Positions 1 through 13,026 of a DNA stretch of 64,000 bases are shown one piece after another. Origin of the DNA: Burkholderia stagnalis (GTDB taxonomy: Bacteria > Pseudomonadota > Gammaproteobacteria > Burkholderiales > Burkholderiaceae); contig NZ_CADESW010000019.1 of the NCBI RefSeq assembly GCF_902830275.1, forward strand, positions 1 to 64,000, written 5' to 3'. A program made the position numbers and the translations under genes. The notes below the pieces were generated by a model, which ran no database searches, was not told the origin of the DNA, and saw only the letters and a program-made list of their open reading frames with translations. Numbering within the stretch: position 1 is the first letter of the stretch; every line of letters begins with the position of its first letter.

Positions 1-64
1 TCAAGCCAGCCTCGGCTTCCTTCAAGATGCCGATGATCTGTTCTTCGGTGAATCGCTTTTTCAT
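1..64 (-). CDS. IS3-family transposase OrfA, 5' part (runs off window)
   Basis: The reverse strand from base 64 reads Met-Lys-Lys-Arg-Phe-Thr-Glu-Glu-Gln-Ile-Ile-Gly and continues past the left edge. This N-terminus is typical of the helix-turn-helix OrfA of IS3-family elements of the IS407 type, which binds the IS ends. Only 21 codons are visible. A purine-rich ribosome site lies just upstream, inside a small inverted repeat. The rest of the element, including its OrfB, must lie outside the window, so its integrity cannot be judged. Confidence 0.75.
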   Translation of the reverse strand, partial: MKKRFTEEQIIGILKEAEAGL

Positions 65-125
65 TGCCGTTCCTCTCTGGAACGGACTCTACACCGTCAC
101 CGTACTAAACGCGGGGAGCAGGTCA
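1..125 (-). mobile_element. Left end of an IS3-family insertion sequence
   Basis: Read on the reverse strand, the element begins at base 125 with TGACCTGCTCCCCG, which matches the usual IS3-family terminus (TGA-C-CTG followed by a C-rich stretch). About 60 bp later comes the OrfA start. The end coincides exactly with the point where an unrelated transposase fragment (123-338) stops, so this IS inserted into or beside an older IS copy. The other end is outside the window. Confidence 0.65.
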
Positions 126-511: not shown

Positions 512-2551
512 CTAGGCATCTCCTGCCTGGACGCCTTTCCTCTCGCCTGAAGATCGCTTTGCTCGTATCTTTCCCTTATCGCGGATGGTCGACTTGGCTA
601 GCTTGGTGAGGTCGCTTGGAGCTCGACGACGCCCGGGAACCTTGACGATAAGCACAAGTCGCGGTTCATTCTCGTTGGGGCGCTGGATCTTCGTCACGGA
701 AAAAAGACTCGTCAAGTGCGGCGTGCCTTGTCGGTTGGGTGTCGCCAGATCAAGTACGAGCAACACACCAAGGCGAATGCTCACGTTTTGATAGTCCGTC
801 GTTTGCGCTGCATAAGAAGTCGCCAACGCGTCGAAGGAGGCGTCCTTCTCTTCGCGCTTTACCTCGATGACCAAACGCTCTGGTCCAGACTTCATGCGAA
901 TATCTGCGCGGCCGCTACCGAGGTTGGTCGGCTCAAGATCGCTGCCTGCAGCGTTTGTGGTTAGCCACCGAAAGAAATCTTCCTGAAGCTCATCTTCGTG
1001 AGGTAACGATCCATCGTCCCGCTCGAATAGATAAGAGCCACCCGGATCATCGCGGCGAGTGACCTCCATGCGGTGATAAACGAAACGGACAAGCCATGCG
1101 ATGGCTGCATTGAAAAGCACTCGTCCATTTTCATTATTCCCATAGTCTGGATGCTCCGAAACGGCTTGGCAACACTGCTCGATGATCTGAACTTCGGCCG
1201 CCGTCAGGTTCCTGAAGAGCAACGTCACGACGTCTGATAGCGCTATAGAGAGAAATCGTTTCTGCTCGCCGGGAATGGAGGATCGGGAGATGGCGGCGGC
1301 GAGAGCATCCTCTGTTTCACTCGCCGCCTCAGAAGGGTTCTGTCGAGGTTTCCCGTGGCCAAGAATGGCTTTGACTTCATCGACCAAGGCGGTCGCGTCG
1401 GACGCCCACGCACTATCCGCATTCTGCCGAAGCCACGCTTGCAGCACATGAAGCTGCCCAGCTTGGGTGGCGACAGCATGCTGTATTCGCGGACGGAGCA
1501 GTTCTTCGATCGCTCCCTGATGCGATCGGCGAAGAATAGATCTGCCCGCGCTGTAAACTGTGAGCAGTGCCTCTTCAATCACGACCGCGGGCTGCCACCA
1601 GCTTGGCTCGTCGAGATGATGGGCGAGTCCGGTCACTTTGCTGGCAAGTACGCTCCAGCAAACCGACTCCGCGTAGCGGCTACCCAGCCATGACGGCGAA
1701 TCCCGCCCTCCGACCCACGCGTTGAGTCCAAAAGCGTCTTGCTTGACCCGGTTGCCGATCTCTTGCAGTTCGCCCGATGGCGCTCCCGCATAAAAGGCGA
1801 GTACAAGGGTCAGGCACTCGCCGTAAAGAGATGCGGCAGGGTTGTATTCCGTTGCGTTTGCCGACGCTTCAAACCACGATTTCGCTTGTTGCAGTACCTC
1901 GGTGTTCGTATCGCACCCTGCATTCTCCAAGGCCACGACAAGGGTCGCCATACCGAGCTCAAAAGTGGCTTCGCCGCGAACGTCATCTTGCTCGGCAAGA
2001 TTGAGCAATACGCTCACCAGGTCATTTTCTCGCCAATGAGAAAAGGCGACGCCAATGACTTTGGCGGCATATTTCAGAAAGCTGGGATCGTCGGCGGCGG
2101 ATACCCCCAAGAGAGCATCCAGCAAGCGGTACTGCCAGCGCCGGTTGGATACGGCCCAACGAAAGGCGCCATCAAGCGCCGCTCCTCGCGCTTGTCCAGG
2201 TAGTTCGCCCTTGTCGGCCACCGCCTTGGAGAGAAAGATGTTGAAGCATAGTTCGTCTCCATTTTCAGGCAGCGGGCGATGCTGATCGAGAATGTCCGTG
2301 GATTCGGTCAACACGAAATCGATCGTCGCCGCACTCAACAAATCCTGAAGGATGGCTAAGTAGGCGGACCTCCTTCCAGCCTGGGCAGTTTTCCAACTGT
2401 CTAGAAATGGCCCAAGGATTTCAGGCATGACCGGCGAGGCACCGATGTCGTGAACGGCCGGAGCCAGCGCATCGATACCACCGATGTCCTCCAGACTCCA
2501 GGGAGCGCCACGTTGCGCCATGTCGATCACGGCTGTCTCGATCGGATGCAT
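512..2551 (-). CDS. Putative defence nuclease, large helical N-terminus plus C-terminal PD-(D/E)XK domain
   Basis: A protein of about 679 residues, last gene of a leftward three-gene cassette. The first 490 residues are helix-rich and match no family I recognise. Near residues 518-570 there is a restriction-endonuclease-like core: an acidic helix (DELQEDFFRWL), then GRADI with Asp about 550, then VIEVKRE with Glu about 563 and Lys about 565. This is the D...ExK metal-dependent nuclease pattern. The C-terminal tail is very basic, which suits DNA binding. The ATPase gene upstream overlaps it: the ATPase stop lies within GTGGTGACC. I chose the ATG at 2551 because GGTGA sits 5 nt before it; the overlapping GTG at 2560 is the alternative. 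A DNA-cutting effector of an ABC-type defence system is inference. Confidence 0.72.
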   Translation of the reverse strand: MHPIETAVIDMAQRGAPWSLEDIGGIDALAPAVHDIGASPVMPEILGPFLDSWKTAQAGRRSAYLAILQDLLSAATIDFVLTESTDILDQHRPLPENGDELCFNIFLSKAVADKGELPGQARGAALDGAFRWAVSNRRWQYRLLDALLGVSAADDPSFLKYAAKVIGVAFSHWRENDLVSVLLNLAEQDDVRGEATFELGMATLVVALENAGCDTNTEVLQQAKSWFEASANATEYNPAASLYGECLTLVLAFYAGAPSGELQEIGNRVKQDAFGLNAWVGGRDSPSWLGSRYAESVCWSVLASKVTGLAHHLDEPSWWQPAVVIEEALLTVYSAGRSILRRSHQGAIEELLRPRIQHAVATQAGQLHVLQAWLRQNADSAWASDATALVDEVKAILGHGKPRQNPSEAASETEDALAAAISRSSIPGEQKRFLSIALSDVVTLLFRNLTAAEVQIIEQCCQAVSEHPDYGNNENGRVLFNAAIAWLVRFVYHRMEVTRRDDPGGSYLFERDDGSLPHEDELQEDFFRWLTTNAAGSDLEPTNLGSGRADIRMKSGPERLVIEVKREEKDASFDALATSYAAQTTDYQNVSIRLGVLLVLDLATPNRQGTPHLTSLFSVTKIQRPNENEPRLVLIVKVPGRRRAPSDLTKLAKSTIRDKGKIRAKRSSGERKGVQAGDA

Positions 2552-2556
2552 GATGG

Positions 2557-4521
2557 TCACCACAAAAATGCAGTACCGGATGCCTGTTGGCGATGGGACG
2601 TTGGTATGTGATCGGTAATGGCCTTCGAGGTAATGCCGGCGACGAAAACCTGCATGTGAGGTAGTTTGCCGGACACCTCTTGAAGGCCAGTCACAAGGTG
2701 GTCGACGTCGTCAGGCGAGACCTCTTGTGCGGCAGGCGAATCGATCATCAGCAAACCAGGGTGACGGCCTATACCCCGATCCTCGGCAATTTCGATCATG
2801 GCGAGCACGGTGGCCACCTTCAAGCGCAGCTTCTCGCCTTCGGTGACGCGGCTATAGCTCGTAGGTGCTCCGGCTTTGGTTAGACTGAGGTTGCCGTTTC
2901 CTTTGAGCGTGGCGTCCGAAAGGTTTTCCATCCCAAAAGCCTTCGCATACTGAACCAGTCGTGCGGAGACGTCGGCGAGCAGTCCATCACGAACCTCCTT
3001 CACGCGCGCTTCGGTTTCGGCTGCGACGGCAGTGAGTATCTTGATTTCACTGGAACGGTCGTCGTCTGGCGGGTTCTGAATGAGCGACGCTTCCTCAAGC
3101 CTCCCTTCAAGAACGGCTACCGCAGTGACCAGCTCCTGGCGTTTGACGTGGGACGCAAGATGCAAGGTGGCAGCTTCGATGCGCTGTTGAAGCTCTCGTA
3201 TTTGCTCTCTCTGGTTCTGCAACGTCGTGCTGGTTTCCTCGTGCCGCTTCTTTGCTTGCTTCGCTGCTACCTGTGAGGCTGCGGCCTGTTCTTCAAGTTG
3301 CAACTTGAGTGCTTCGGCATCTTCGGAGTTGGAAATGGATTCGCCGCATACCGAGCAGGCGAATGCGGTATGTTCCCGCTCCATCCTCGCCTTTGAGATG
3401 GTGTGGTCGCATCGTGGGCAGCACTTAGGCTCCAGCCGGCGGAACACCGCACTGGCCGACATGGCATCGCTGTGCGTCTGCAGGTCGCATTTGTCTTCCA
3501 TGCTTGCCGCTTCTGCTAAGCGCAACGCGGTGGCTTCTCTCTCCAGACGCTCGGTCAATGCATGTACCTTGCGCTGGATTGATGCAAGGAGTTCTGAGTC
3601 GGTCTCGATGGCTTTGCGAATGGCGTCGTCGCTCGGCATCGCCTGTAGCTCTGCTCGCTTGATACCAAGCTCGGACTCAATACTCTCGGCACGCTGCTTC
3701 GCTTTGTTCTGAGATTGCGCGTTGCGGCGTAACGATGACCTCGCCGCCTGCTCGACAACCTGGAGAGCCGTTCGGGCGGCTGCCAATGTAGAGACCCAGG
3801 GCACGCCCAGGTACATTTGCATGAGCCGCGCAGGAACCCCTGATTGTGTTGGAAGGTCGCCGAGGAGAACCTCATAGTTAGTGCCGATAAACATAGCGCC
3901 GGAAAGGGCAGCCCACCCATGCGCGACGGGAGTGCCATCCTCGCTGCCGTTCTTTCTCCATGTGGCGATGGCATCCATCGAAAACGCTTGCATGAAGAAA
4001 TTGGCCATCACCGACTCGAACTGAGCGGCGCTCTCGAATGCTGCAAGCTCGGTCGACTCCTCGGAGCAATCTTCGCCGGTGGAGCGCACGCGGCTAAGGG
4101 AGCCGATGACCTGCCCTTGGGTTTTCGCGTCAATCTCGAAGGTGTCGGCGTCCAAGACGAATCGTAGACGAGCCTTATGGATCCAGCTCCGTACATCTTC
4201 TTGCAAGGTGCTGGATTCATGACCACGCAGCATCCAGCGCGCGACCTCGATAATCGTCGACTTCCCTCGAAAGTTCTGCTCCGAGAGCATCGCCCATAGG
4301 CCATGCTGAAGATCCTTCCATGAAAAACAGAACGGCCCGCCGTTAGCGATGCCACTTTTGATCCCGGAGAATTCGATTTCCCGCAGATACAGGCGTCGCG
4401 GCGTCCCCAGGACAGGGGTCGGTTGAATGCGGTGGGCGGCCAGTACGGCCTCGACTTCAGACGCTTTGGTCCCCGCTTTCCCTGCAATCGCCTGCAGCCA
4501 TTCCTTGTTCGCATTAGCCAT
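2557..4521 (-). CDS. SMC/RecN-like ABC ATPase with zinc-hook coiled coil
   Basis: 654 residues with the head-coil-head plan of SMC/Rad50-type proteins. A P-loop-like segment EQNFRGKSTI lies at 81-90; it keeps the GKST core but lacks the usual earlier glycines. Coiled-coil arms at roughly 245-360 and 400-520 flank a zinc-ribbon hook with CPRC at 368-371 and CSVC at 389-392. The C-terminal head has TEGEKLRLKV (560-569) in place of the ABC signature and a Walker B, LLMIDSPAAQE, at 590-600. Such ATPases sense or clamp DNA, and in defence cassettes they gate a nuclease partner. A strong ribosome site (GGGGGGAAGA) precedes the ATG. The gene is 22 bp downstream of the small protein gene and overlaps the nuclease gene start, so the three are probably one operon. 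Confidence 0.8.
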   Translation of the reverse strand: MANANKEWLQAIAGKAGTKASEVEAVLAAHRIQPTPVLGTPRRLYLREIEFSGIKSGIANGGPFCFSWKDLQHGLWAMLSEQNFRGKSTIIEVARWMLRGHESSTLQEDVRSWIHKARLRFVLDADTFEIDAKTQGQVIGSLSRVRSTGEDCSEESTELAAFESAAQFESVMANFFMQAFSMDAIATWRKNGSEDGTPVAHGWAALSGAMFIGTNYEVLLGDLPTQSGVPARLMQMYLGVPWVSTLAAARTALQVVEQAARSSLRRNAQSQNKAKQRAESIESELGIKRAELQAMPSDDAIRKAIETDSELLASIQRKVHALTERLEREATALRLAEAASMEDKCDLQTHSDAMSASAVFRRLEPKCCPRCDHTISKARMEREHTAFACSVCGESISNSEDAEALKLQLEEQAAASQVAAKQAKKRHEETSTTLQNQREQIRELQQRIEAATLHLASHVKRQELVTAVAVLEGRLEEASLIQNPPDDDRSSEIKILTAVAAETEARVKEVRDGLLADVSARLVQYAKAFGMENLSDATLKGNGNLSLTKAGAPTSYSRVTEGEKLRLKVATVLAMIEIAEDRGIGRHPGLLMIDSPAAQEVSPDDVDHLVTGLQEVSGKLPHMQVFVAGITSKAITDHIPTSHRQQASGTAFLW

Positions 4522-4543
4522 GTCTTCCCCCCGTAGTTATGCT

Positions 4544-5173
4544 TTATGCCGCGCGTATCGCGGTGACTCGTTGTCGAACTTCCTCTGCGATGGAAGGAAT
4601 GACACCACCCAGTTTGGTCTCAGCATAACTCGCACGCTTGTATTGCTGCTGCTTGAGTGCAGCCCCACCTTTATCGCCCGCGACGCGGGCCACCAGCAAA
4701 GAACGATCGGCGTACCACTGGAGAACAGGCTCCTGGGCAATCGCATCCGCGCAGAGTTCGTAACCCGGCTTCGTGAGGATGAAATGGGTTTCGCGTACCT
4801 TGTCGCCGCTACCCTTGATTCCCGTGATGCGAACAAGATCGCGTGATCGAAGCAAGGACAGCGCATCGTCCAGTCGCTCATACGCCCCAAAAAAATACCT
4901 AATCATCGGAACGCGACGTAAGTCGGGCTCGCCGTTGTCGATGATGGCCTCGGCTTCGCTCATCCAAGCGGGATCGCCTGTTTCGTCGAAAAGATCAAGA
5001 AGTTCCGCAGCCAGATAATCGGGATTACGCATCCAGAAGTCGAAGGCCAATAAACGGGCTTCGCCTTTGAATATCATCACCTCTTCCGATGCATCCGGGT
5101 TTTCCAGTGGCTCGCCCCCGGCCTTCAACACATAGAGCAGGCGCAAGGCATCACGATGCGGTGAACGGATCAT
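4544..5173 (-). CDS. Small winged-helix-like protein, first gene of the ABC ATPase-nuclease cassette
   Basis: 209 residues, no certain family. Residues 45-60 (FDFWMRNPDYLAAELL) form an amphipathic helix. Residues about 90-140 read like a winged helix: a helix pair around YERLDDALSLLRSRDLV, then a beta wing ending in THFILTKPGYELC. The C-terminal 40 residues are basic. Gene order (small wHTH-like protein, SMC-like ATPase, nuclease) resembles the ABC-three-component class, in which a small middle component bridges ATPase and effector, and also the broader Lamassu-type layout. Assignment as middle component is inference from position, size and fold impression. Confidence 0.62.
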   Translation of the reverse strand: MIRSPHRDALRLLYVLKAGGEPLENPDASEEVMIFKGEARLLAFDFWMRNPDYLAAELLDLFDETGDPAWMSEAEAIIDNGEPDLRRVPMIRYFFGAYERLDDALSLLRSRDLVRITGIKGSGDKVRETHFILTKPGYELCADAIAQEPVLQWYADRSLLVARVAGDKGGAALKQQQYKRASYAETKLGGVIPSIAEEVRQRVTAIRAA

Positions 5174-5617
5174 GCGACCGCCCCGACATCAATCACACGT
5201 TGTGCAGGTATTTGGTACAGCCCGCATGCGTGATGCCTTATGAAGGCTCGTTGAAACGCGCTAGGCGACGACGGCTGCCGCATATCCCTATTCCCCCGAT
5301 TTCCCAATCCATTGTTTATAGCGCAGCTTACCTACAAAAGGACACAGGTGGGTTCGACCGGACCCCTCCCGATGCCTTTTGAGATTGGACGATATGGCCC
5401 GATCTTTAGATTGATTCTAACCCGCCTCGGAGCAACCCAATGGTCAGATGGCAGTGGACCGCTTTTCGGCCACGCATCGTTGATGGCTTCTTGCCTTAAT
5501 CTGCTTTCGCCGCTGCTCGTGGTCGAGCGCTTTAGCGGGTGTAATCGCCACGCTTCTTCGTCGATTCCCGCCCCGATCGGAACACGACCTCCGAGCCACA
5601 TCAATCGCCTGAATCAG
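5174..5617. other. Gene-poor gap inside the island, likely promoter region of the three-gene cassette
   Basis: 444 bp between the end of the orphan gene and the start of the small winged-helix-like gene. The reading frames here (for example a 90-codon frame at 5332-5604 on the reverse strand) lack recognisable domains and a convincing ribosome site. The stretch is locally AT-rich around 5280-5340 and 5380-5420. It is long enough to hold the promoter and leader of the three-gene cassette, which suggests that the cassette is transcribed separately from the upstream genes. I see no confident -35/-10 pair. Confidence 0.4.
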
Positions 5618-6307
5618 TTAGCCTTGGTATTTGTGCGCGACCGCGACCAGGTCATTGACGCCGCGCTGCCCCCAGCCACTGCGCCAAGCCCAACGCTTGA
5701 TTTCGTCAGGGTCGATGGTATGGCCGCCACTCCTTAACGCCTTGAAGGTTGCGGTGGCAGCCTTCTTGTCGGCCGAATGGAGGAGACCGGTCGCCACGTT
5801 GATGGATGACTGGAGCCGGCTTAGCGCTGCCGTAACCTCAGGGGCCATGGTCGATGGCGTCGCATGCCATGTGCTGGTACCCCAAGTTGTGGGCTGCCAG
5901 GTCGACAACCACTCCTTACCGTGCCCCTCAAGCCAGGGGACGAACACAATGGCGGCAGTCGACGGGAGGTCATCGATCTTTTCGATGTCCGGCAGCGTGA
6001 GATGCATGGCCAGAAACAGCGCATCGGAGGGTGCCCCCGAGAAGACTGCTGGGTAGACCAGCGTCATCTTCACTCCTGTGTTACCAAGCGTCACGCTATT
6101 GCCGGCTTGGAGTGCTTTAACGGCAGTGGAACCGAGCGTTTCGGCCACAATGCCCTGCGGGAACGTCCCTTTGGACGATACGGCGAGAACTAGGTGTTCG
6201 ATGTGATGTTCATTGCAATACGTGGCGGCCTCGCTCAAAGCAAAGCCAACCTTGGCCTTATCCGGGCCTACATTTTCGATGAGGAACCTGGGTGTTCTAG
6301 TGGTCAT
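5618..6307 (-). CDS. Orphan protein of the defence island, unknown function
   Basis: 229 residues that I cannot place in any family. The first 150 residues alternate strands and helices (for example HLVLAVSSKGTFPQGIVAETLG and an ending AAIVFVPWLEG), suggesting a small alpha/beta fold. The last 70 residues are helical and basic, ending WAWRSGWGQRGVNDLVAVAHKY. No signal peptide or membrane segment is visible. It lies 230 bp downstream of the PHP-ATPase gene and 445 bp upstream of the ABC cassette, on the same strand. The ATG at 6307 has AAGGAAG just upstream; a GTG one codon earlier is possible. It could be an accessory, regulator or immunity component of either neighbour. Confidence 0.6.
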   Translation of the reverse strand: MTTRTPRFLIENVGPDKAKVGFALSEAATYCNEHHIEHLVLAVSSKGTFPQGIVAETLGSTAVKALQAGNSVTLGNTGVKMTLVYPAVFSGAPSDALFLAMHLTLPDIEKIDDLPSTAAIVFVPWLEGHGKEWLSTWQPTTWGTSTWHATPSTMAPEVTAALSRLQSSINVATGLLHSADKKAATATFKALRSGGHTIDPDEIKRWAWRSGWGQRGVNDLVAVAHKYQG

Positions 6308-6539
6308 CACGCTTCCTTGATTGATTGTTGTCGCTTGGTGCTAGCCCCCGCTCCCGCCCAATCGATTTCGCTTCCGGGCAGCCCGCCCTTCCCTTGTGCG
6401 CCGGTTTATCGATTGAGTGCGCTCATGCGCTCACTCGCGGCCAGTGACGCGTCTACTGCGCCGTATAGGGCTGAGCACGCACTGCATTCGAGAGCCAGAA
6501 GAACTATTAGGTCCCATTAGTCCCGGCCTCTGTCCTGCC

Positions 6540-9500
6540 CTAAGAAGCTGCGGGATGGTACTTGATCCGACGATTGTTGAAAGCCGGCATGGTTCCTTCA
6601 AGCACATTCACCACATGCCCGTTGATCGCTGGGTTCTCAATTGCTCCGGCAACGTAAGAAATTTTTGAGCCCGCCTTTCGATCAAAGGTGGACCAAACAA
6701 CCTGCTCCGCATCGCAAACGACGGCGAGATTGGGATTGTGCGTGACCATGACGATTTGCCGCCGCTTCTTCGCCTCCGTAACTACGGGAACGAGCAAGCT
6801 CACGACCGTTTCGTTGTCGAGGTTTTCCTCGGGCTGATCAAGGATGATTGGGTTGCGCCCCTTGTCCACCAACAGGTAGAAGATCAACAGCAGAGCGCCG
6901 CGCTGCCCAGGCGAGAGCTGCTCTATCTGCGTGTCCTGAAAAAGCAGCGAGTAGCGCGGCTCCAGAAACGAAAGACCGAAAAGCAGATCGTAGACGTCGG
7001 CTGCCGTCTTGTCTTTTCGCAACAGCGGCGCAATGCCAATAGCCTGCTTCCCTCCGGAAGCGGCCGCCTCGATCTTCGCATGCAGCTCGGAAACGAATCC
7101 CATGACATCGGCGCGGTGGTTGAAGTCGTATTTGTCGGCCAGACCTCGAACGACCATATAGCCTTCATCCGTTCCTCGAAACTCTCCCGTATTTTGCTTG
7201 ATAAGCTCGAACAAAGAAGCCGCGATCGTATCGGCCGAACCACCTAGCGTGGCCTGAAATTGAAGTTTGTAATCCTCTCGAATCAGACTGTTGCTCTGGA
7301 TTAGGTCCTGGACGGGCTTGAAGAGATCTGCGCGCGCCTTGCGTTGCGCATCGAGCACGTCGAAGATCTCCCCGGTCAGCTTGGCTCGCAGTTCGCGGTG
7401 GGCCTCAAGTCGCGCCGGCAACCCATCAAGTTGCGTGATGCGTGCTTGCAAGCCGAGCATAGCATCCGGTGTATCAGAGGTTCCGGTTAGTTCCGTGAGC
7501 TTTGCATTCCAGGTTTCGAGAGCCTTGAGACTCTGTTGGTAGGCCAATTGAGGCGCGTTCAGCTTCGCATTGAGGGCCGCTTGCTCTTCCAGAAGCTTGG
7601 ACCGCTGTTCCGCAGCGGTTGCGGCATCCGTCTTCAGTTGTGCTTGTGCGTCAGGAATTGCCAGAGCGATATCATCCAGCGCCTGCGTATCTACGGTGAG
7701 GGTGGCCAGCTGCCCAGGCTTTAAGCCAAGAATGTCGAAATCCTTGGCGGTATCGTCGACAAATTGCTTGAATGCACGCTCCAGAACACGGAGCCTTTCA
7801 CGAACACTCTGAACGGCCTTGAGCTTTCCTGCCAAAGTCAGTTCACTCGTGTTGTGCACCACGCCAGCCTCATCGATCGCCTTCAAATTCCCGGCGATGG
7901 ACTCAAGGCGTGTCGAAGCATCCTGTTGTTCGGGCGTCAACGACGTCGCTGGCTTTGCCAGGGTCTCCGGCTTGATCTTGTTGTGTTCTTCAATTTGGCG
8001 ATTTTTGACTTGTAGGAGTTCTTGCAGCGTACTTCTCACATTTGGCTGAAGCTGCTCCTCGAAAGCGGTGATTTCCTGGTTGATTCGATGCAAATCTTTG
8101 CGAAAATCATTCAGTTGAATGCGAAACCCGCTCTCCTGTTGATCGATCAACTGATCGAAATCGAGTGCGCCGAGTCGAATAGCCTCACCAGCGTGCGAGA
8201 AGATGACAGCGCGCAGCTCTCTCTCGAAAGCGTCGGAGCGGCCCGTCACGTGAGCGTTACAAAGAGCCTCAAAGTGCCCCTGCGGGATGTAGCGAACCAT
8301 TTCCACCCTGTCGGCTGGCGGATCCTCGTTTAGGTTGCGGGTTTCCTCTGTCTCGTCGAGCCACCTCAAACCACCGACAAAGTTCTTCGCAGGCTCGCCT
8401 GATTTGCCGCGGAATCGATTCTTCTGCAAAAACGAGAAATGTTCCCTCTGGCGAGAGTTTCCGAGCAGCGCAATGATGTCAGCAAGTGCGCTTTTGCCAC
8501 TGCCCTTGTTGCCGATGATCGCAACCAGATCTGGGTTGAGGGGCAAGTCGACACCATCAAGCCACTTGCCCGGAGCCGTCGGCACCTGCTTGCTCACCGA
8601 TACTCGATCAATGAAGAAGGTTTTGTTCGCCTCGATCTCAAGCTGCTTCGGCGGGCGAGCGCCAATGTAGGAACGCTTGGCGGGCTCGAGAATGGCCTGC
8701 TGTAGCCCGTGAAAGGTCGGATCGGCCTTGATCCAGGTGATCTTGCGTGAGGGGAAATCACCATAGCCACGCTTATCGTTATCGCCTTTTGCGCCAACGA
8801 AGCAATGCGCATCGCTCCCCGACACGACGAGGCGTGGAACACCGCCAAGCCCCTCCTGAAACTTCTTCAGAAACGGCTTGTTCTTCGGCGTTTCCTCTCC
8901 AACAAAGCAATGGCGAAGTTCGAGGTCTCGCGATTCGAAGATCGGTGACGACTTGAAGAGACCAATGAAGAAAGCGTAGTGATCCTGCCACTTCACTTCG
9001 GCAAGGCCATCACTGGTGTCGTAGGGCATGAAGCCGATCGCCAGTCCATCTTCGACTTGCTCAATCGCCTTGCGATAGCTCTCGACGGTGATCTCTGCCA
9101 TCGACGCTCCGGCATAGAGCGCCTTAGCCTCGTCAGTCATGTCGGCCTTCTTGAAGGAATGGACTTTTAGAATGTCTTCCGACAAGGTTTGAGCGAGCGT
9201 GACAAGGGCAGCGTCCGAGAGAGGCCGATTAATGACGGCTACCTGCAAGGCGGCCTTGAAGTCGTGAAGTGCCTGATCCGGGATTTGATCCGAGAACAAG
9301 ACATGCGCATTGAGGCGCCCATTTGGGGTCTTCATCGGTGCCATGAGACGCAGCTCAATGCCCGGCAACACCGTCTTGTGCAGTTGCGGCGCGCCGACTT
9401 CTTTGAGCCTGCGCTTCAACGCAAACCAGCCGTCGAAAGTCCAGTAATCCATCAGAGCGAAGACCGCTGGCTCCGCCGCATTCATGGCTGCAACCATCTC

Positions 9501-9641
9501 GTCCACTAACGCGCGATTGTGGGCCGAGTTCAGGTCAGCGTCGAACTTGGCACCGTTCCAGTGAAACGATGCCGGTGTGTGAACGTGCAGATCCCACTGC
9601 CGCCACTCCGAACCGCGCTCAAACGCTTTCGGCAATGCCAT
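6540..9641 (-). CDS. PHP phosphoesterase domain fused to SMC-like ABC ATPase (TrlF/Ppl-type defence protein)
   Basis: 1033 residues. The N-terminal third is a PHP domain: DLHVHTPAS (His19, His21), MDYWTFDG (Asp65), PGIELRL (Glu96), NAHVLF (His113) and SGSDAHC (Asp277, His279), all expected metal ligands. A full ABC ATPase follows: Walker A GNKGSGKS at 377-384, long coiled coils between about 500 and 780, signature LSPGQRG at about 909, Walker B IILDQPEENLD with Asp935, and switch histidine in MVTHNP at 968. Every catalytic motif looks intact. This architecture matches proteins annotated as TrlF-family AAA-like ATPases and resembles the single-gene PHP-ATPase anti-phage systems called Ppl. A nuclease or nucleotidase triggered by the ATPase is inference. 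The ATG has a strong upstream site, GGGGGAGAG. Confidence 0.82.
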   Translation of the reverse strand: MALPKAFERGSEWRQWDLHVHTPASFHWNGAKFDADLNSAHNRALVDEMVAAMNAAEPAVFALMDYWTFDGWFALKRRLKEVGAPQLHKTVLPGIELRLMAPMKTPNGRLNAHVLFSDQIPDQALHDFKAALQVAVINRPLSDAALVTLAQTLSEDILKVHSFKKADMTDEAKALYAGASMAEITVESYRKAIEQVEDGLAIGFMPYDTSDGLAEVKWQDHYAFFIGLFKSSPIFESRDLELRHCFVGEETPKNKPFLKKFQEGLGGVPRLVVSGSDAHCFVGAKGDNDKRGYGDFPSRKITWIKADPTFHGLQQAILEPAKRSYIGARPPKQLEIEANKTFFIDRVSVSKQVPTAPGKWLDGVDLPLNPDLVAIIGNKGSGKSALADIIALLGNSRQREHFSFLQKNRFRGKSGEPAKNFVGGLRWLDETEETRNLNEDPPADRVEMVRYIPQGHFEALCNAHVTGRSDAFERELRAVIFSHAGEAIRLGALDFDQLIDQQESGFRIQLNDFRKDLHRINQEITAFEEQLQPNVRSTLQELLQVKNRQIEEHNKIKPETLAKPATSLTPEQQDASTRLESIAGNLKAIDEAGVVHNTSELTLAGKLKAVQSVRERLRVLERAFKQFVDDTAKDFDILGLKPGQLATLTVDTQALDDIALAIPDAQAQLKTDAATAAEQRSKLLEEQAALNAKLNAPQLAYQQSLKALETWNAKLTELTGTSDTPDAMLGLQARITQLDGLPARLEAHRELRAKLTGEIFDVLDAQRKARADLFKPVQDLIQSNSLIREDYKLQFQATLGGSADTIAASLFELIKQNTGEFRGTDEGYMVVRGLADKYDFNHRADVMGFVSELHAKIEAAASGGKQAIGIAPLLRKDKTAADVYDLLFGLSFLEPRYSLLFQDTQIEQLSPGQRGALLLIFYLLVDKGRNPIILDQPEENLDNETVVSLLVPVVTEAKKRRQIVMVTHNPNLAVVCDAEQVVWSTFDRKAGSKISYVAGAIENPAINGHVVNVLEGTMPAFNNRRIKYHPAAS

Positions 9642-10103
9642 GGACTCTCCCCCTCACGGAATGCTCATTTTTGACGACCAGCATTCGCGCGTCCCTTGCG
9701 CGCCCAAGAATAAGGACATGCCGAACGCCGACCGGAGTAAGCCAGCCAAACTGGCTGATTTCCCCCAATGTTCCCCGCCGCACTAGGTGCCCATTAATGC
9801 ACGCAGACGCATTCTCTGCCCGCCCGACACCGTGTGCGGTACGTTCAGCAAGATATTGCCGAGCCCAGCCCAACCCGGCAAGCACTAAACAACAGGTCAA
9901 TTCAATGCTGACCGATCCAAGACGGCAGCGAATTGCCACAGCCGACGCCGGGAAACGTCAAAGTGCTCGATGGCGATCAGGGCCAACAGCCACCCATTTG
10001 CCATAATGCAGTGCTTCGTCTTCATGGGAGGATCGAGAGGCGGTCCTGACGGCCCCACCTCACCACCAGAACCACGACACGAAGCTGACGATAGGACATG
10101 CAG
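9642..10103. other. Gap without a convincing gene in the island
   Basis: 462 bp between the PHP-ATPase start and the end of the island replication gene. A 106-codon reverse frame (9619-9939) runs into the next gene, has no recognised domain and no clear ribosome site, so I do not call it. The stretch should contain the promoter of the leftward PHP-ATPase gene. It could also hold decayed island genes, since STY4528-type genes normally sit among other conjugative-element genes that are absent here. Confidence 0.4.
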
Positions 10104-11288
10104 CTAACTGTTGGACATGTGCGACCAATGGCCTGACTTCGCTGGCAGGTTCAGCAAGTCGCGAATGCGAGCGAGATGGACACGTACCGACTCGGGATCA
10201 GCAGACGTCGTCCGCCGCTCGTGTGCCCGTGACAGCTCGGGCGGCATCGCAACGCAGGAAGCTGCCGGCGAAGCTTGAGCCAGCACCGGTGTTGTCGCCC
10301 CAGGCCGGCGGCCAGCCCACAAACGGAACTCGCCCCTCAATGCGCGCGCAATCAAGCTAAGCAGGTAAGCCACCGCATTGCGCACGGTGCCGAGCCGACT
10401 GCGTGCTTCCAGTTCTGCCAGAACCTCCTGCCGTTGCTCATCCGGCAACCGATGCAGGGCCAGGCGCAGATCGCGATGCTGGTCTTGCGTGATGCGTTGC
10501 AGGCAGGATGGCCAGGCTGACGCAACTGCATCGGCCGTTCCCTCGCGCGCGCCTGCGCGGTGCGTACGTACTTCTTTAGAAGTTTCTTTATACGTACGTA
10601 AGGGCGCGGCGCGCAGGGAGGCACTCGGGAACGTAGGGTCCACATCCTGCGAACGAGGTGGCGTCTCGTCGGATGCTGTAGGCACTGACGAAGATGGTGG
10701 CGCCGGAGGATCACGCTCATCGTCCCGAGAGCTACCCTGCGAGGGCAGACGCACCTGCACAACGAGCGGCCGCAAGACCGCCGGCACCGTCGGATCGGCC
10801 GCCAGTTCGACTAGCACGCTCGTGGCCACGGCCTGCGTCGCCGGGTACGTATCGCAAAGCGCATCACGCAGCAGATCGGCATAGCCGGGGTCTGCTGCGC
10901 ACACGGTCGCGCAGCTCGCGGGCGTGTCGTGAACCACATAAGCGGGCGGGAGCGGCTGCCCCGTGATGGGATCATGCCGCTGCGGCTCCTGGTGAATCCA
11001 GCGCGTCAGGCGCAGCAAGAACACGCAGCGCTTGGCGGTGGACGGCGACACCAGCGATTGAGTCTCGGCGCAGGCCAGCAGCCGGCGCTGCCATTCCAGA
11101 TTGGGCGGCAGGCTCCCCTCCCGGGCCGCTGCCAGGAACACCAAGTACAGATTGCGCTCCATCGGCGTCAGGCGTTTGTCGCGCAACAGCGCGAGCGGCA
11201 CACCGACAGTAGGCACGGATCGAGCGCCATCCTGCGTCGCCGCGTCGCTCGGGTGAGCATGGTGAATTGGGGAAGCTTGCTGGGACAT
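10104..11288 (-). CDS. STY4528-family integrative-element replication protein
   Basis: 394 residues from the ATG at 11288, which has GGAG 8-9 nt upstream; upstream in-frame codons are less likely. Residues 25-135 have the family's N-terminal pattern: LTPMERNLYLVF, a helix-turn-helix-like segment SLVSPSTAKRCVFLLRLTRWI, and YVVHDTPAS followed by DPGYADLL. A low-complexity Ser/Pro/Asp linker and a TYKETSKEVRTHR segment follow, then a helical C-terminus. These proteins occur in integrative conjugative elements of the SPI-7/PFGI-1 class and are thought to act in element replication or maintenance. Usual neighbours (ParB, DUF2857, Ssb, topoisomerase III) are missing, so it is probably a survivor of a deleted element. 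Confidence 0.75.
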   Translation of the reverse strand: MSQQASPIHHAHPSDAATQDGARSVPTVGVPLALLRDKRLTPMERNLYLVFLAAAREGSLPPNLEWQRRLLACAETQSLVSPSTAKRCVFLLRLTRWIHQEPQRHDPITGQPLPPAYVVHDTPASCATVCAADPGYADLLRDALCDTYPATQAVATSVLVELAADPTVPAVLRPLVVQVRLPSQGSSRDDERDPPAPPSSSVPTASDETPPRSQDVDPTFPSASLRAAPLRTYKETSKEVRTHRAGAREGTADAVASAWPSCLQRITQDQHRDLRLALHRLPDEQRQEVLAELEARSRLGTVRNAVAYLLSLIARALRGEFRLWAGRRPGATTPVLAQASPAASCVAMPPELSRAHERRTTSADPESVRVHLARIRDLLNLPAKSGHWSHMSNS

Positions 11289-11526
11289 GATCGAACTCCA
11301 CAGAACCCTGGCACATCGCCAGATGGGTTCGTATGGCATCCGATTAGCGGAGCGGCGTCATGAAGCAATACGGCACGCACGGCCCCCGATTTCTTCGACC
11401 CGGCGTATGCTTCAGCCTTGGAACTCGCTGGACAACAGGATTTCACACCCTGCGACAAGCCCATGTGGCACCGACTGTTTTGATAGTCGCCTTGATAGTT
11501 ACCTGGGCGAACCACCAAAAACAAAA

Positions 11527-11552
11527 CCCCGGAAGACCGTAATCTTCCGGGG
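11527..11552 (-). terminator. Rho-independent terminator of tRNA-Ser
   Basis: Perfect 10-bp stem CCCCGGAAGA / TCTTCCGGGG with a 6-nt loop. On the reverse strand it is followed by TTTTGTTTTT. It lies 17 bp past the CCA end of the tRNA, the expected place for a tRNA terminator. Confidence 0.85.
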
Positions 11553-11568
11553 TTCCACCGCCATAAGC

Positions 11569-11662
11569 TGGCGGAGACGGAGGGATTCGAACCCTCGATC
11601 CAGGTTTTGGCCCAGATGCTCCCTTAGCAGGGGAGTGCCTTCGACCTCTCGGCCACGTCTCC
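11569..11662 (-). tRNA. tRNA-Ser (anticodon GCU)
   Basis: 94 nt including an encoded CCA. The acceptor stem GGAGACG pairs with CGTCTCC, discriminator G. The anticodon arm reads CTCCC-CTGCTAA-GGGAG, giving anticodon GCU for AGC/AGU codons. There is a long variable arm, as expected for class II tRNA-Ser, and the T arm carries GGTTCGAATCC. The gene marks the border between the AT-richer island to the left and the GC-rich core to the right. Its 3' end faces the island, the normal polarity for tRNA-targeted integration. Confidence 0.95.
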
Positions 11663-11775
11663 CAAACTTTCGCTCGCACCAGGGAGGCAGTGCGACGAGA
11701 ACGAAATAATATAGGGTTTCGAACTGCGCGTCAATTTCCGTGATGCATTTTCTTCAACGCATCACGAAAATTTCA

Positions 11776-13026
11776 TCATGCCTGGTCGAGTTCGAATGCC
11801 TTGTGCAGCGCGCGGACGGCCAGCTCCATGTATTTTTCGTCGATCAGCACCGAAATCTTGATTTCGGACGTCGAGATCATCTGGATGTTGATGCCCTCTT
11901 CCGACAGCGTGCGGAACATCTTGCTCGCGACACCGACGTGCGAACGCATGCCGACGCCGACGACCGACACCTTCGACACCTTCGGGTCGCCCTGCACCTG
12001 CTCGGCGTTCACGTGGCCCTTCACCTGGTTGGTGAGGATGTCCATCGCCTTCTGGTAGTCGCCGCGGCCGACCGTGAACGTGAAGTCCGTCTTGCCCTCG
12101 ACGCTCTGGTTCTGGATGATCATGTCGACGTCGACGTTCGCGTCGGCGACCGGGCCGAGGATCTGATACGCGATGCCCGGCTTGTCGGGCACGCCCATCA
12201 CCGCAATGCGTGCTTCGTCGCGCTGGAACGCGATGCCGGAAATGACTGCCTTTTCCATGGTCTCGTCTTCTTCAAAAGTAATCAGGGTGCCCGAGCGCAT
12301 TTCCTCGTCGAGCGCAATCATCGGATCGGTCAGGCTCGACAGCACGCGCGTCTTCACCTGGTATTTGCCGGCGAATTCGACCGAGCGGATCTGCAGGACC
12401 TTCGAGCCGAGGCTCGCCATTTCCAGCATCTCCTCGAACGTCACGCGATCGAGGCGGCGCGCCTCCTCGACGACGCGCGGGTCGGTCGTGTAGACGCCGT
12501 CGACGTCCGTGTAGATCAGGCACTCCTCGGCGCTCAGCGCGGCCGCGACCGCCACGGCCGACGTGTCCGAGCCGCCGCGGCCGAGCGTCGTGATGTGGCC
12601 GTCCGGGTCGACGCCCTGGAAGCCCGTGATGATCACGACCTTGCCTGCGTCGAGATCCGCCTTCACGCGCTCGTCGTCGATCGAGTGGATGCGCGCTTTC
12701 GTGAATGCGCTGTCGGTCTTGATCGGCACTTGCCAGCCGGCATAGCTCACGGCCTCGACGCCGATCTCCTGCAGCGCGATCGACAGCAGGCCGACGCTGA
12801 CCTGCTCGCCGGTCGACGCGATCATGTCGAGCTCACGCGGGCTCGGCTGGCTCGAAATCTCTTTCGCAAGACCGAGCAGACGGTTGGTTTCGCCGGACAT
12901 CGCCGAAGGCACGACCACCATCTGGTGCCCGGCCTGATGCCATTTTGCGACGCGTTTCGCGACGTTCTTGATGCGCTCGACCGAGCCCATCGAAGTGCCG
13001 CCGTATTTATGTACGATGAGTGCCAT
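11776..13026 (-). CDS. lysC: Aspartate kinase
   Basis: 416 residues; phosphorylates L-aspartate, the first step to lysine, methionine, threonine and diaminopimelate. The N-terminal amino-acid kinase domain starts with the family motif [10 protein letters not shown] (residues 6-15). The C-terminus has two ACT domains, beginning near [12 protein letters not shown] (about 270) and [11 protein letters not shown] (about 345), the usual sites of allosteric feedback control. Length is normal for the single-function beta form. The ATG at 13026 starts at the conserved N-terminus; longer in-frame starts add unrelated residues. It lies downstream of tilS on the same strand, 339 bp away. Confidence 0.96.

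What the first reader, a model, noticed from the sequence alone, without database searches (positions are those of the whole stretch)
512..5173. Compact three-gene cassette: winged-helix-like protein, zinc-hook SMC ATPase, PD-(D/E)XK nuclease
Seen: three leftward genes, tightly packed (22-bp gap, then overlap), encoding a 209-aa small basic protein with a winged-helix-like segment, a 654-aa Rad50-like ATPase with CxxC...CxxC, and a 679-aa protein with a D...ExK core at its C-terminus. Known: ABC-three-component and Lamassu-type anti-phage systems use this logic. Inference: a DNA-sensing ATPase releases a nuclease. The N-terminal 490 residues of the nuclease are unfamiliar, and the nuclease is C-terminal, unlike Lamassu effectors with an N-terminal nuclease, so this may be an undescribed subtype.
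Basis: partly seen in the sequence, partly recalled or inferred. Interest (0 to 1): 0.78.

Follow-up and report, generated by a model that had tools for sequence, protein, structure and literature searches.

The report
Lamassu defence operon with C-terminal nuclease
Three bacterial genes on a mobile island form a Lamassu-type anti-virus alarm, in which a DNA-sensing ATPase probably unleashes a DNA-cutting enzyme; the type is already in a public defence-system library, though this branch is built in an unusual order.

Summary
Three intact leftward genes lie at 512-5173: 679, 654 and 209 aa. PADLOC-DB 2.0.0 settles the identity: its LmuA, LmuB and LmuC models match over nearly the full length (E 6.5e-200, 1.9e-211, 1.6e-78). 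This is a Lamassu-family defence operon, so the locus type is not undescribed.

D550, E563 and K565 are conserved in 24 of 25 LmuA proteins examined, with a GxxD-ExK-QxxxY signature. All three genes, in the order C-B-A, occur in 17 of 21 LmuA loci; three exceptions are cut by a record or contig end, one is decayed.

Differences from canonical Lamassu operons are internal to the family: C-B-A rather than A-C-B order, nuclease at the C-terminus behind a predicted helical solenoid, and in 15 of 18 LmuB, the window's included, a P-loop without its first glycine. Most likely mechanism, inferred by analogy: LmuB2-LmuC holds LmuA inactive, aberrant DNA releases it, and it cuts DNA (abortive defence). 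Verdict: new member of a known kind, modest interest.

The parts
4544..5173 (-). lmuC (209 aa), first gene of the operon: winged-helix-like small subunit
2557..4521 (-). lmuB (654 aa): Rad50/SMC-like ATPase, proposed DNA sensor
   Evidence: PADLOC PDLC03864 LmuB E 1.9e-211; profile against canonical LmuB 99%; Rad50 ATPase E 0.0013 with profile A2, only just above coiled-coil proteins at 0.0029
4255..4284 (-). degenerate Walker A of LmuB, residues 80-89 (SEQNFRGKST)
   Evidence: N83 in 18 of 18 rows, GK[ST] in 17 of 18; the first Gly (G-x4-GK[ST]) is kept in only 3 of 18
3346..3420 (-). CxxC...CxxC in the coiled-coil part of LmuB, residues 368-392
   Evidence: C371, C389, C392 in 18 of 18, C368 in 17 of 18 rows
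2821..2850 (-). ABC signature-like motif of LmuB (RVTEGEKLRL, residues 558-567)
   Evidence: G562 and R566 in 18 of 18 rows
2719..2760 (-). Walker B of LmuB with Asp594-Ser595 in place of Asp-Glu, and invariant E600
   Evidence: 18 of 18 rows
512..2551 (-). lmuA (679 aa): effector
   Evidence: PADLOC PDLC03853 LmuA E 6.5e-200, residues 1-650
1061..2551 (-). N-terminal all-helical part of LmuA (residues 1-497), proposed docking and holding module
632..1033 (-). C-terminal PD-(D/E)XK nuclease core of LmuA (residues 507-640): E519, D550, E563, K565, Q583, Y587
   Evidence: identical in 20 of 20 aligned rows and in 4 of 5 further LmuA proteins, the exception being the decayed L039; helix-strand-strand-helix-strand order in the model
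6540..9641 (-). neighbour, not part of the operon: TrlF-family AAA-like ATPase on the same island
   Evidence: NF045780 E 1.2e-197
10104..11339 (-). neighbour: STY4528-family island replication protein, suggests a mobile island
   Evidence: NF040582 138.8 bits, cut-off 130
11569..11662 (-). tRNA-Ser(GCT) beside the island boundary
   Evidence: ARAGORN; genus-wide backbone begins at about 11468-11523

Best explanation
The three genes are a Lamassu-family anti-phage/anti-plasmid operon, lmuC-lmuB-lmuA, carried by a foreign island at a tRNA-Ser. LmuB, a short Rad50-like ATPase with a cysteine motif in its coiled coil, would dimerise, bind ATP with little or no hydrolysis (the Walker B glutamate and, in this protein, the first Walker A glycine are replaced) and clamp DNA ends or other aberrant DNA made during phage or plasmid replication. 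LmuC, probably a winged-helix subunit, would link LmuB to LmuA or to DNA. LmuA would be held inactive through its N-terminal helical part; on sensing it would be released or rearranged and cut DNA with its C-terminal RecB/Cas4-like PD-(D/E)XK domain, stopping the infection, probably at the cost of the cell. Shown here: operon, family, motifs, co-occurrence. Predicted: folds. Inferred: complex, trigger, release, DNA as target, abortive outcome.
For: PADLOC LmuA/LmuB/LmuC models at E 6.5e-200/1.9e-211/1.6e-78; all 20, 18 and 18 aligned proteins in the same models. Trio complete in 17 of 21 LmuA loci. In a phylum sample of 398 genomes near-full-length LmuA occurs in 7, LmuB in the same 7, LmuC in 6 of them, and no genome had a listed LmuB or LmuC without LmuA. 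Distances between the three proteins correlate over 17 rows (the window and 16 loci; rho 0.63-0.78, 0 of 2000 permutations reach it). Nuclease residues identical in 24 of 25 LmuA proteins examined. LmuB related to canonical LmuB and Rad50. Literature: LmuB as likely sensor, Walker B Glu-to-Gln general in LmuB, abortive outcome (PMC10586767, passages and one section); LmuA liberated and tetramerised (PMC12409362, passage); a type II Lamassu protects E. coli against phages (PMC8565338, passages). Island setting: GC of the three genes 0.56-0.58 against 0.645-0.726 per kb at 12-20 kb.
Against: No activity was tested. The LmuA model is of moderate quality (mean pLDDT 68, pTM 0.50, 4 sequences), and neither Foldseek nor the nuclease-domain profile found a solved nuclease. 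LmuC shows no profile similarity to six canonical LmuC (probability 1.3%). Gene order and domain order differ from canonical Lamassu (PMC10586767). LmuA may not tetramerise as Cap4-type LmuA does. The P-loop is not uniformly degenerate: 3 of 18 LmuB keep the first glycine, so loss of ATP turnover is not shown for the branch.
Confidence: 0.78

Rival explanations
1. Direct restriction rather than cell suicide: the LmuB2C-LmuA complex stays on the invading DNA and LmuA cuts only that molecule, as Wadjet cuts plasmids.
For: The effector looks like a nuclease, and several copies sit on conjugative or mobilizable plasmids, which must not be cut by their own system.
Against: No kleisin, KITE or Toprim partner in the operon; for the Lamassu systems studied the literature favours release of LmuA and cell death (PMC10586767; PMC12409362).
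Confidence: 0.2
2. A DNA-repair or recombination complex (SbcCD/Mre11-Rad50-like) with a RecB-like nuclease, not a defence system.
For: LmuB matches Rad50 at E 0.0013 and a phage SbcC-like family at 3.7e-6; the nuclease motif is RecB/Cas4-like.
Against: Very patchy distribution (near-full-length LmuA in 7 of 398 genomes of the phylum sample), mobile settings, all three proteins in defence-system models.
Confidence: 0.07
3. A decaying remnant: the operon lies at the end of a contig, next to a transposase fragment, and is no longer functional.
For: Fragment with a sub-threshold integrase-core match at 123-338 (24.5 bits, cut-off 32.6) and two further contig starts with the same 125 bp.
Against: All three reading frames are intact and the residues invariant among homologues are kept. 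A decayed copy looks different: in L039 lmuB is a 102-aa fragment, lmuC is missing and the LmuA frame ends without ExK.
Confidence: 0.08

Closest known systems
PADLOC-DB Lamassu models PDLC03853 (LmuA), PDLC03864 (LmuB), PDLC03872 (LmuC)
   Same: All three proteins match over nearly the full length, the C-terminal nuclease included; the aligned homologues fall in the same models.
   Different: No difference found; the library gives no subtype label or domain description, so the reading of the effector as a C-terminal PD-(D/E)XK nuclease was worked out here.
DdmABC / Lamassu type II with Cap4 nuclease (Vibrio cholerae), and the solved LmuB-like chains 9hqu, 9ny5, 9uxl (named DUF3732 domain-containing protein)
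   Same: Three components, Rad50-like LmuB with altered Walker B, nuclease effector, small LmuC (PMC12409362).
   Different: Six of seven canonical-type loci fetched (of nine hits) run A-C-B with a 162-174 aa LmuC in the middle and a 362-407 aa LmuA; the seventh, L081, shows no lmuC (PADLOC names checked for three loci). Here the order is C-B-A, with a 209 aa LmuC and a 679 aa LmuA that has its nuclease at the C-terminus. The six canonical LmuB aligned keep the first P-loop Gly; here 15 of 18 do not.
ABC-three-component (ABC-3C) systems
   Same: Rad50/SMC-like ATPase, small subunit and effector in one operon (PMC12409362 and PMC10586767, passages).
   Different: The small subunit is not the middle gene here.
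Wadjet (JetABCD)
   Same: SMC-like ATPase that controls a nuclease, plasmid/phage DNA as likely target.
   Different: No kleisin, KITE or Toprim subunit; only marginal JetC scores for the window's LmuB (E 0.015) and 4.5e-4 for single homologues.
Rad50-Mre11 / SbcCD
   Same: ATPase head and cysteine-hook region.
   Different: No Mre11/SbcD partner in the operon; nuclease of another type.

Membership tests
Lamassu (broad family) | SMC/Rad50-like LmuB | tested here: met
   PDLC03864 E 1.9e-211 plus four other LmuB models at E 1e-14 to 2.7e-7; hhalign 99% to canonical LmuB over the head's N-lobe
Lamassu (broad family) | effector LmuA and small LmuC in the same operon | tested here: met
   trio in 17 of 21 LmuA loci
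Lamassu (broad family) | LmuC homologous to the canonical small subunit | tested here: inconclusive
   matches its own LmuC model E 1.6e-78, but profile against six canonical LmuC 1.3%; predicted winged helix
Lamassu (broad family) | anti-phage or anti-plasmid activity | not testable with these tools
   needs expression and challenge
Lamassu (broad family) | typical, not defining: effector domain N-terminal, docking domain C-terminal | tested here: not met
   nuclease motif C-terminal in 20 of 20 rows; PADLOC's own LmuA model PDLC03853 spans this architecture, so it does not exclude membership
DdmABC / Lamassu type II Cap4 subtype | Cap4-type LmuA and A-C-B gene order | tested here: not met
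   no match to PDLC03848 or any LmuA model other than PDLC03853 up to E 1; order C-B-A against A-C-B
PD-(D/E)XK nuclease, RecB/Cas4-like | GxxD, ExK and QxxxY motifs in order (motif set recalled) | tested here: met
   20 of 20 aligned rows and 4 of 5 further proteins
PD-(D/E)XK nuclease, RecB/Cas4-like | alpha-beta core fold | tested here: inconclusive
   secondary-structure order fits, but model quality is moderate, the domain was not searched alone and no solved nuclease was matched
Wadjet | kleisin, KITE and Toprim subunits | tested here: not met
   three-gene operon; none matched in PADLOC or Pfam for the three proteins and three neighbours scanned

The most novel reading that the evidence does not exclude
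This C-B-A lineage is a mechanistically distinct branch of Lamassu: an effector that, in the sample seen, is never swapped, in which a helical solenoid docks on LmuB and a C-terminal RecB/Cas4-like nuclease is unleashed, driven by a LmuB that has lost the Walker B glutamate throughout and, in most members, the first P-loop glycine, and so acts as a one-shot, non-hydrolysing switch with a self-contained zinc site in its coiled coil.
Probability: 0.25. Interest if true: 0.5.

Novelty: new member of a known kind. Interest (0 to 1): 0.3.

Why it matters
It shows that a Lamassu model present in a defence library, without a domain description there, encodes an effector with its recognisable nuclease at the unusual end, and that its LmuB lacks residues normally linked to ATP turnover. 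That makes it a useful case for testing whether Lamassu ATPases need hydrolysis. It does not open a new class of system.

Tried and rejected
Rejected: 'undescribed subtype', because PADLOC-DB has full-length models for all three proteins. Rejected: a classical Rad50 hook, because each LmuB has two CxxC. Rejected: Wadjet and Mre11-Rad50 membership. Corrected on checking: I first took loss of the first P-loop glycine as general in the branch; a recount shows 3 of 18 LmuB (L029, L033, L041) keep it and 5 of 18 fit [AG]-x4-GK[ST].

Led nowhere: Pfam, NCBIfam and PHROGs gave no informative match for LmuA and LmuC. PDB sequence searches with LmuA, LmuC and the nuclease domain gave nothing credible, nor did LmuB alone. 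The canonical LmuB profile did find solved LmuB-like chains and the canonical LmuC profile only a weak LmuC chain (E 0.56), so the copy holds Lamassu structures, but the rows shown for the profiles of this branch do not include them (for LmuB the best 60 of 102 rows were shown). A Cas4 family search in six host genomes found none and gave no reference set. No copy in the phage collection by LmuB protein search, and none in E. coli genomes by distant DNA search with lmuB-lmuC; the viral scan with LmuA alone found none. No sigma-70-like promoter or terminator at 5100-5700. The papers that I tried for subtypes, structures and DdmABC are not held, so it stays open whether they describe this effector. 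My recollection that one tool's subtype list has a 'Lamassu-Hypothetical' label that might be this one is recalled and untested (a text search for that label and three others listed 13 papers, none with that label).

Limits of the counts: of the 32 plasmid records with LmuA, 13 were fetched. Of the 12 genomes with an LmuA match, four hits are weak and partial (G097, G174, G229, G272) and one is a contig-end fragment (G252) with neither LmuB nor LmuC in view. The genome searches for LmuA and LmuB scored at most 2 candidates per genome, and the one for LmuB listed only E <= 1e-20. Rows dropped: A1 leaves out L039 and L048; A2 leaves out L035 (shortened LmuB), L039, L046 (LmuB in two pieces at a contig end) and L048; A3 leaves out the four loci without LmuC; the nuclease alignment A8 also leaves out L004. 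I checked L039 and L048 afterwards: L048 keeps the nuclease residues, the L039 frame ends without them. One viral locus (L062/L067) gives the same identities as L043, so they are probably the same organism; the 24 of 25 therefore counts that protein twice. L004 is a metagenome-assembled genome with ambiguous bases; its odd P-loop and missing C368 are probably errors.
Full report
Observation. The three minus-strand genes are present and intact: 512-2551 (679 aa), 2557-4521 (654 aa) and 4544-5173 (209 aa). GC of the three genes is 0.56-0.58, against 0.645-0.726 per kb from 12 to 20 kb; one island gene, 10104-11339, has 0.65.

Identity. Pfam, NCBIfam and PHROGs say little, but PADLOC-DB 2.0.0 names all three: LmuA PDLC03853 (E 6.5e-200, residues 1-650 of 679), LmuB PDLC03864 (E 1.9e-211, 1-654 of 654) and LmuC PDLC03872 (E 1.6e-78, 3-208 of 209). 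LmuB also scores against four other LmuB models (E 1e-14 to 2.7e-7), whereas LmuA and LmuC match no other PADLOC model up to E 1. The trio is therefore an outlying but already modelled branch of the Lamassu family.

Recurrence. Of 21 LmuA loci examined, 17 carry lmuC, lmuB and lmuA in that order; the four others are L037 and L046 (cut by a record or contig end; LmuB of L046 is also in two pieces), L048 (a 4-kb contig) and L039 (lmuB reduced to a fragment, no lmuC). In L035 LmuB is shortened to 556 aa. Five IMG/VR contigs carry lmuC; three have the full trio, one has lmuC-lmuB up to the contig end, one has lmuC at the contig end. In a sample of 398 genomes of the phylum, the window's included, near-full-length LmuA is found in 7, LmuB in the same 7 and LmuC in 6 of these, the seventh being cut by a contig end; 5 further genomes have partial or weak LmuA matches. 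So the effector was not swapped in this sample. Pairwise distances of the three proteins correlate over 17 rows, the window and 16 loci (rho 0.78 A-B, 0.74 B-C, 0.63 A-C; 0 of 2000 permutations reach these), as expected for a unit that travels together, though shared ancestry alone also gives this.

LmuB. The P-loop reads S-E-Q-N-F-R-G-K-S-T. Among 18 aligned LmuB, GK[ST] is kept in 17, but the full G-x4-GK[ST] only in 3 (L029, L033, L041) and [AG]-x4-GK[ST] in 5; the six canonical LmuB aligned all keep the first glycine. Walker B has Asp-Ser in 18 of 18 rows in place of Asp-Glu, and an invariant Glu six residues after the Asp. The canonical LmuB fetched here show Asp-Gln, Asp-Ser or Asp-Asn at that place, and a review reports Glu-to-Gln as general (PMC10586767, section read), so a slow or hydrolysis-free ATPase is a family theme, not special to this branch. 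Four cysteines in two CxxC motifs stand in the middle of the coiled coil; another Lamassu LmuB (L083) also has two CxxC. Profile comparison with canonical LmuB gives 99% over 119 columns.

Comparison with canonical Lamassu. A search with another LmuB model (PDLC03859) hit 9 of 200 genomes of the same order; of seven such loci fetched, six run lmuA-lmuC-lmuB with a middle subunit of 162-174 aa and a LmuA of 362-407 aa, and one (L081) shows no lmuC. PADLOC names were checked for three of them. The window trio runs C-B-A, has a larger LmuC, a larger LmuA and the nuclease at the C-terminus. A review describes LmuA effector domains as N-terminal (PMC10586767). These are differences within the family; PADLOC's model already covers them.

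Setting. The chromosomal backbone is shared by 36 of 36 other same-genus genomes searched, starting at 11468-11523 and running to the right; of the 1.9 kb of query to the left, nothing matched at that place (query 9600-12600). The boundary lies about 50-100 bp past the 3' end of a tRNA-Ser. The island also carries a TrlF-family ATPase and an STY4528-family island replication protein. The window begins at the first base of its contig, next to a transposase fragment (sub-threshold integrase-core match; IS3 type by my reading) whose 125-bp end also starts two other contigs, so the left end of the island is not visible. Of ten annotated plasmid stretches, four have TIR, NACHT, restriction, AbiE or toxin-antitoxin genes nearby and two lie among conjugation genes; three stretches had no annotation.

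Mechanism. By analogy with DdmABC, in which LmuA is reported to be liberated and to form a tetramer (PMC12409362, passage), and with DNA-end or hairpin sensing suggested for Lamassu (PMC12904381, passages), the most likely mechanism is an LmuB dimer with LmuC that holds LmuA silent and frees it on aberrant DNA, after which LmuA cuts DNA. Complex formation, trigger, release, target and outcome are all inferred.

Verdict. Real, well supported and largely ordinary: a new member of a known kind with some unusual internal features. I do not claim that nothing is published on this branch: my eight paper searches covered only open-licence papers, and the subtype and structure papers that I tried are not held.

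Noticed in passing
window 6540-9641: TrlF-family AAA-like ATPase (NF045780, E 1.2e-197), one gene away from the Lamassu operon on the same island.
   Followed up: partly
window 5618-6310: 230-aa protein of unknown function with relatives on 19 plasmid records from Bradyrhizobium to haloarchaea, some annotated DUF1889; in the four neighbourhoods looked at, no TrlF or Lamassu product is named beside it, and once AbiE-type genes are.
   Followed up: partly
window 11468-11523 and 11569-11662: Island boundary about 50-100 bp past the 3' end of a tRNA-Ser(GCT), shared by 36 of 36 same-genus relatives; the other end lies beyond the contig start.
   Followed up: partly
window 1-125: End of a transposable element (IS3 type by my reading); the same 125 bp start contigs C15 and C47, so the assembly breaks at repeated copies.
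   Followed up: yes
L035 (Roseovarius plasmid) and L037 (Phaeobacter plasmid): The trio (in L037 cut by the record start) lies next to type IV secretion genes, in L035 between relaxase/coupling genes and the VirB block; L035's LmuB is shortened.
   Followed up: no
L065: Full trio between an arsenical pump gene pair (ArsA/ArsB) and a phage integrase followed by a head-binding-domain protein: a cassette at a provirus edge.
   Followed up: no
L012, L013, L002: The LmuA profile's C-terminal region also hits large proteins (open frames of 1347 and 1355 aa, E about 5e-6) and a 483-aa protein in a same-genus genome (E 1.2e-11): the nuclease domain may be used elsewhere; Pfam names none of them.
   Followed up: partly
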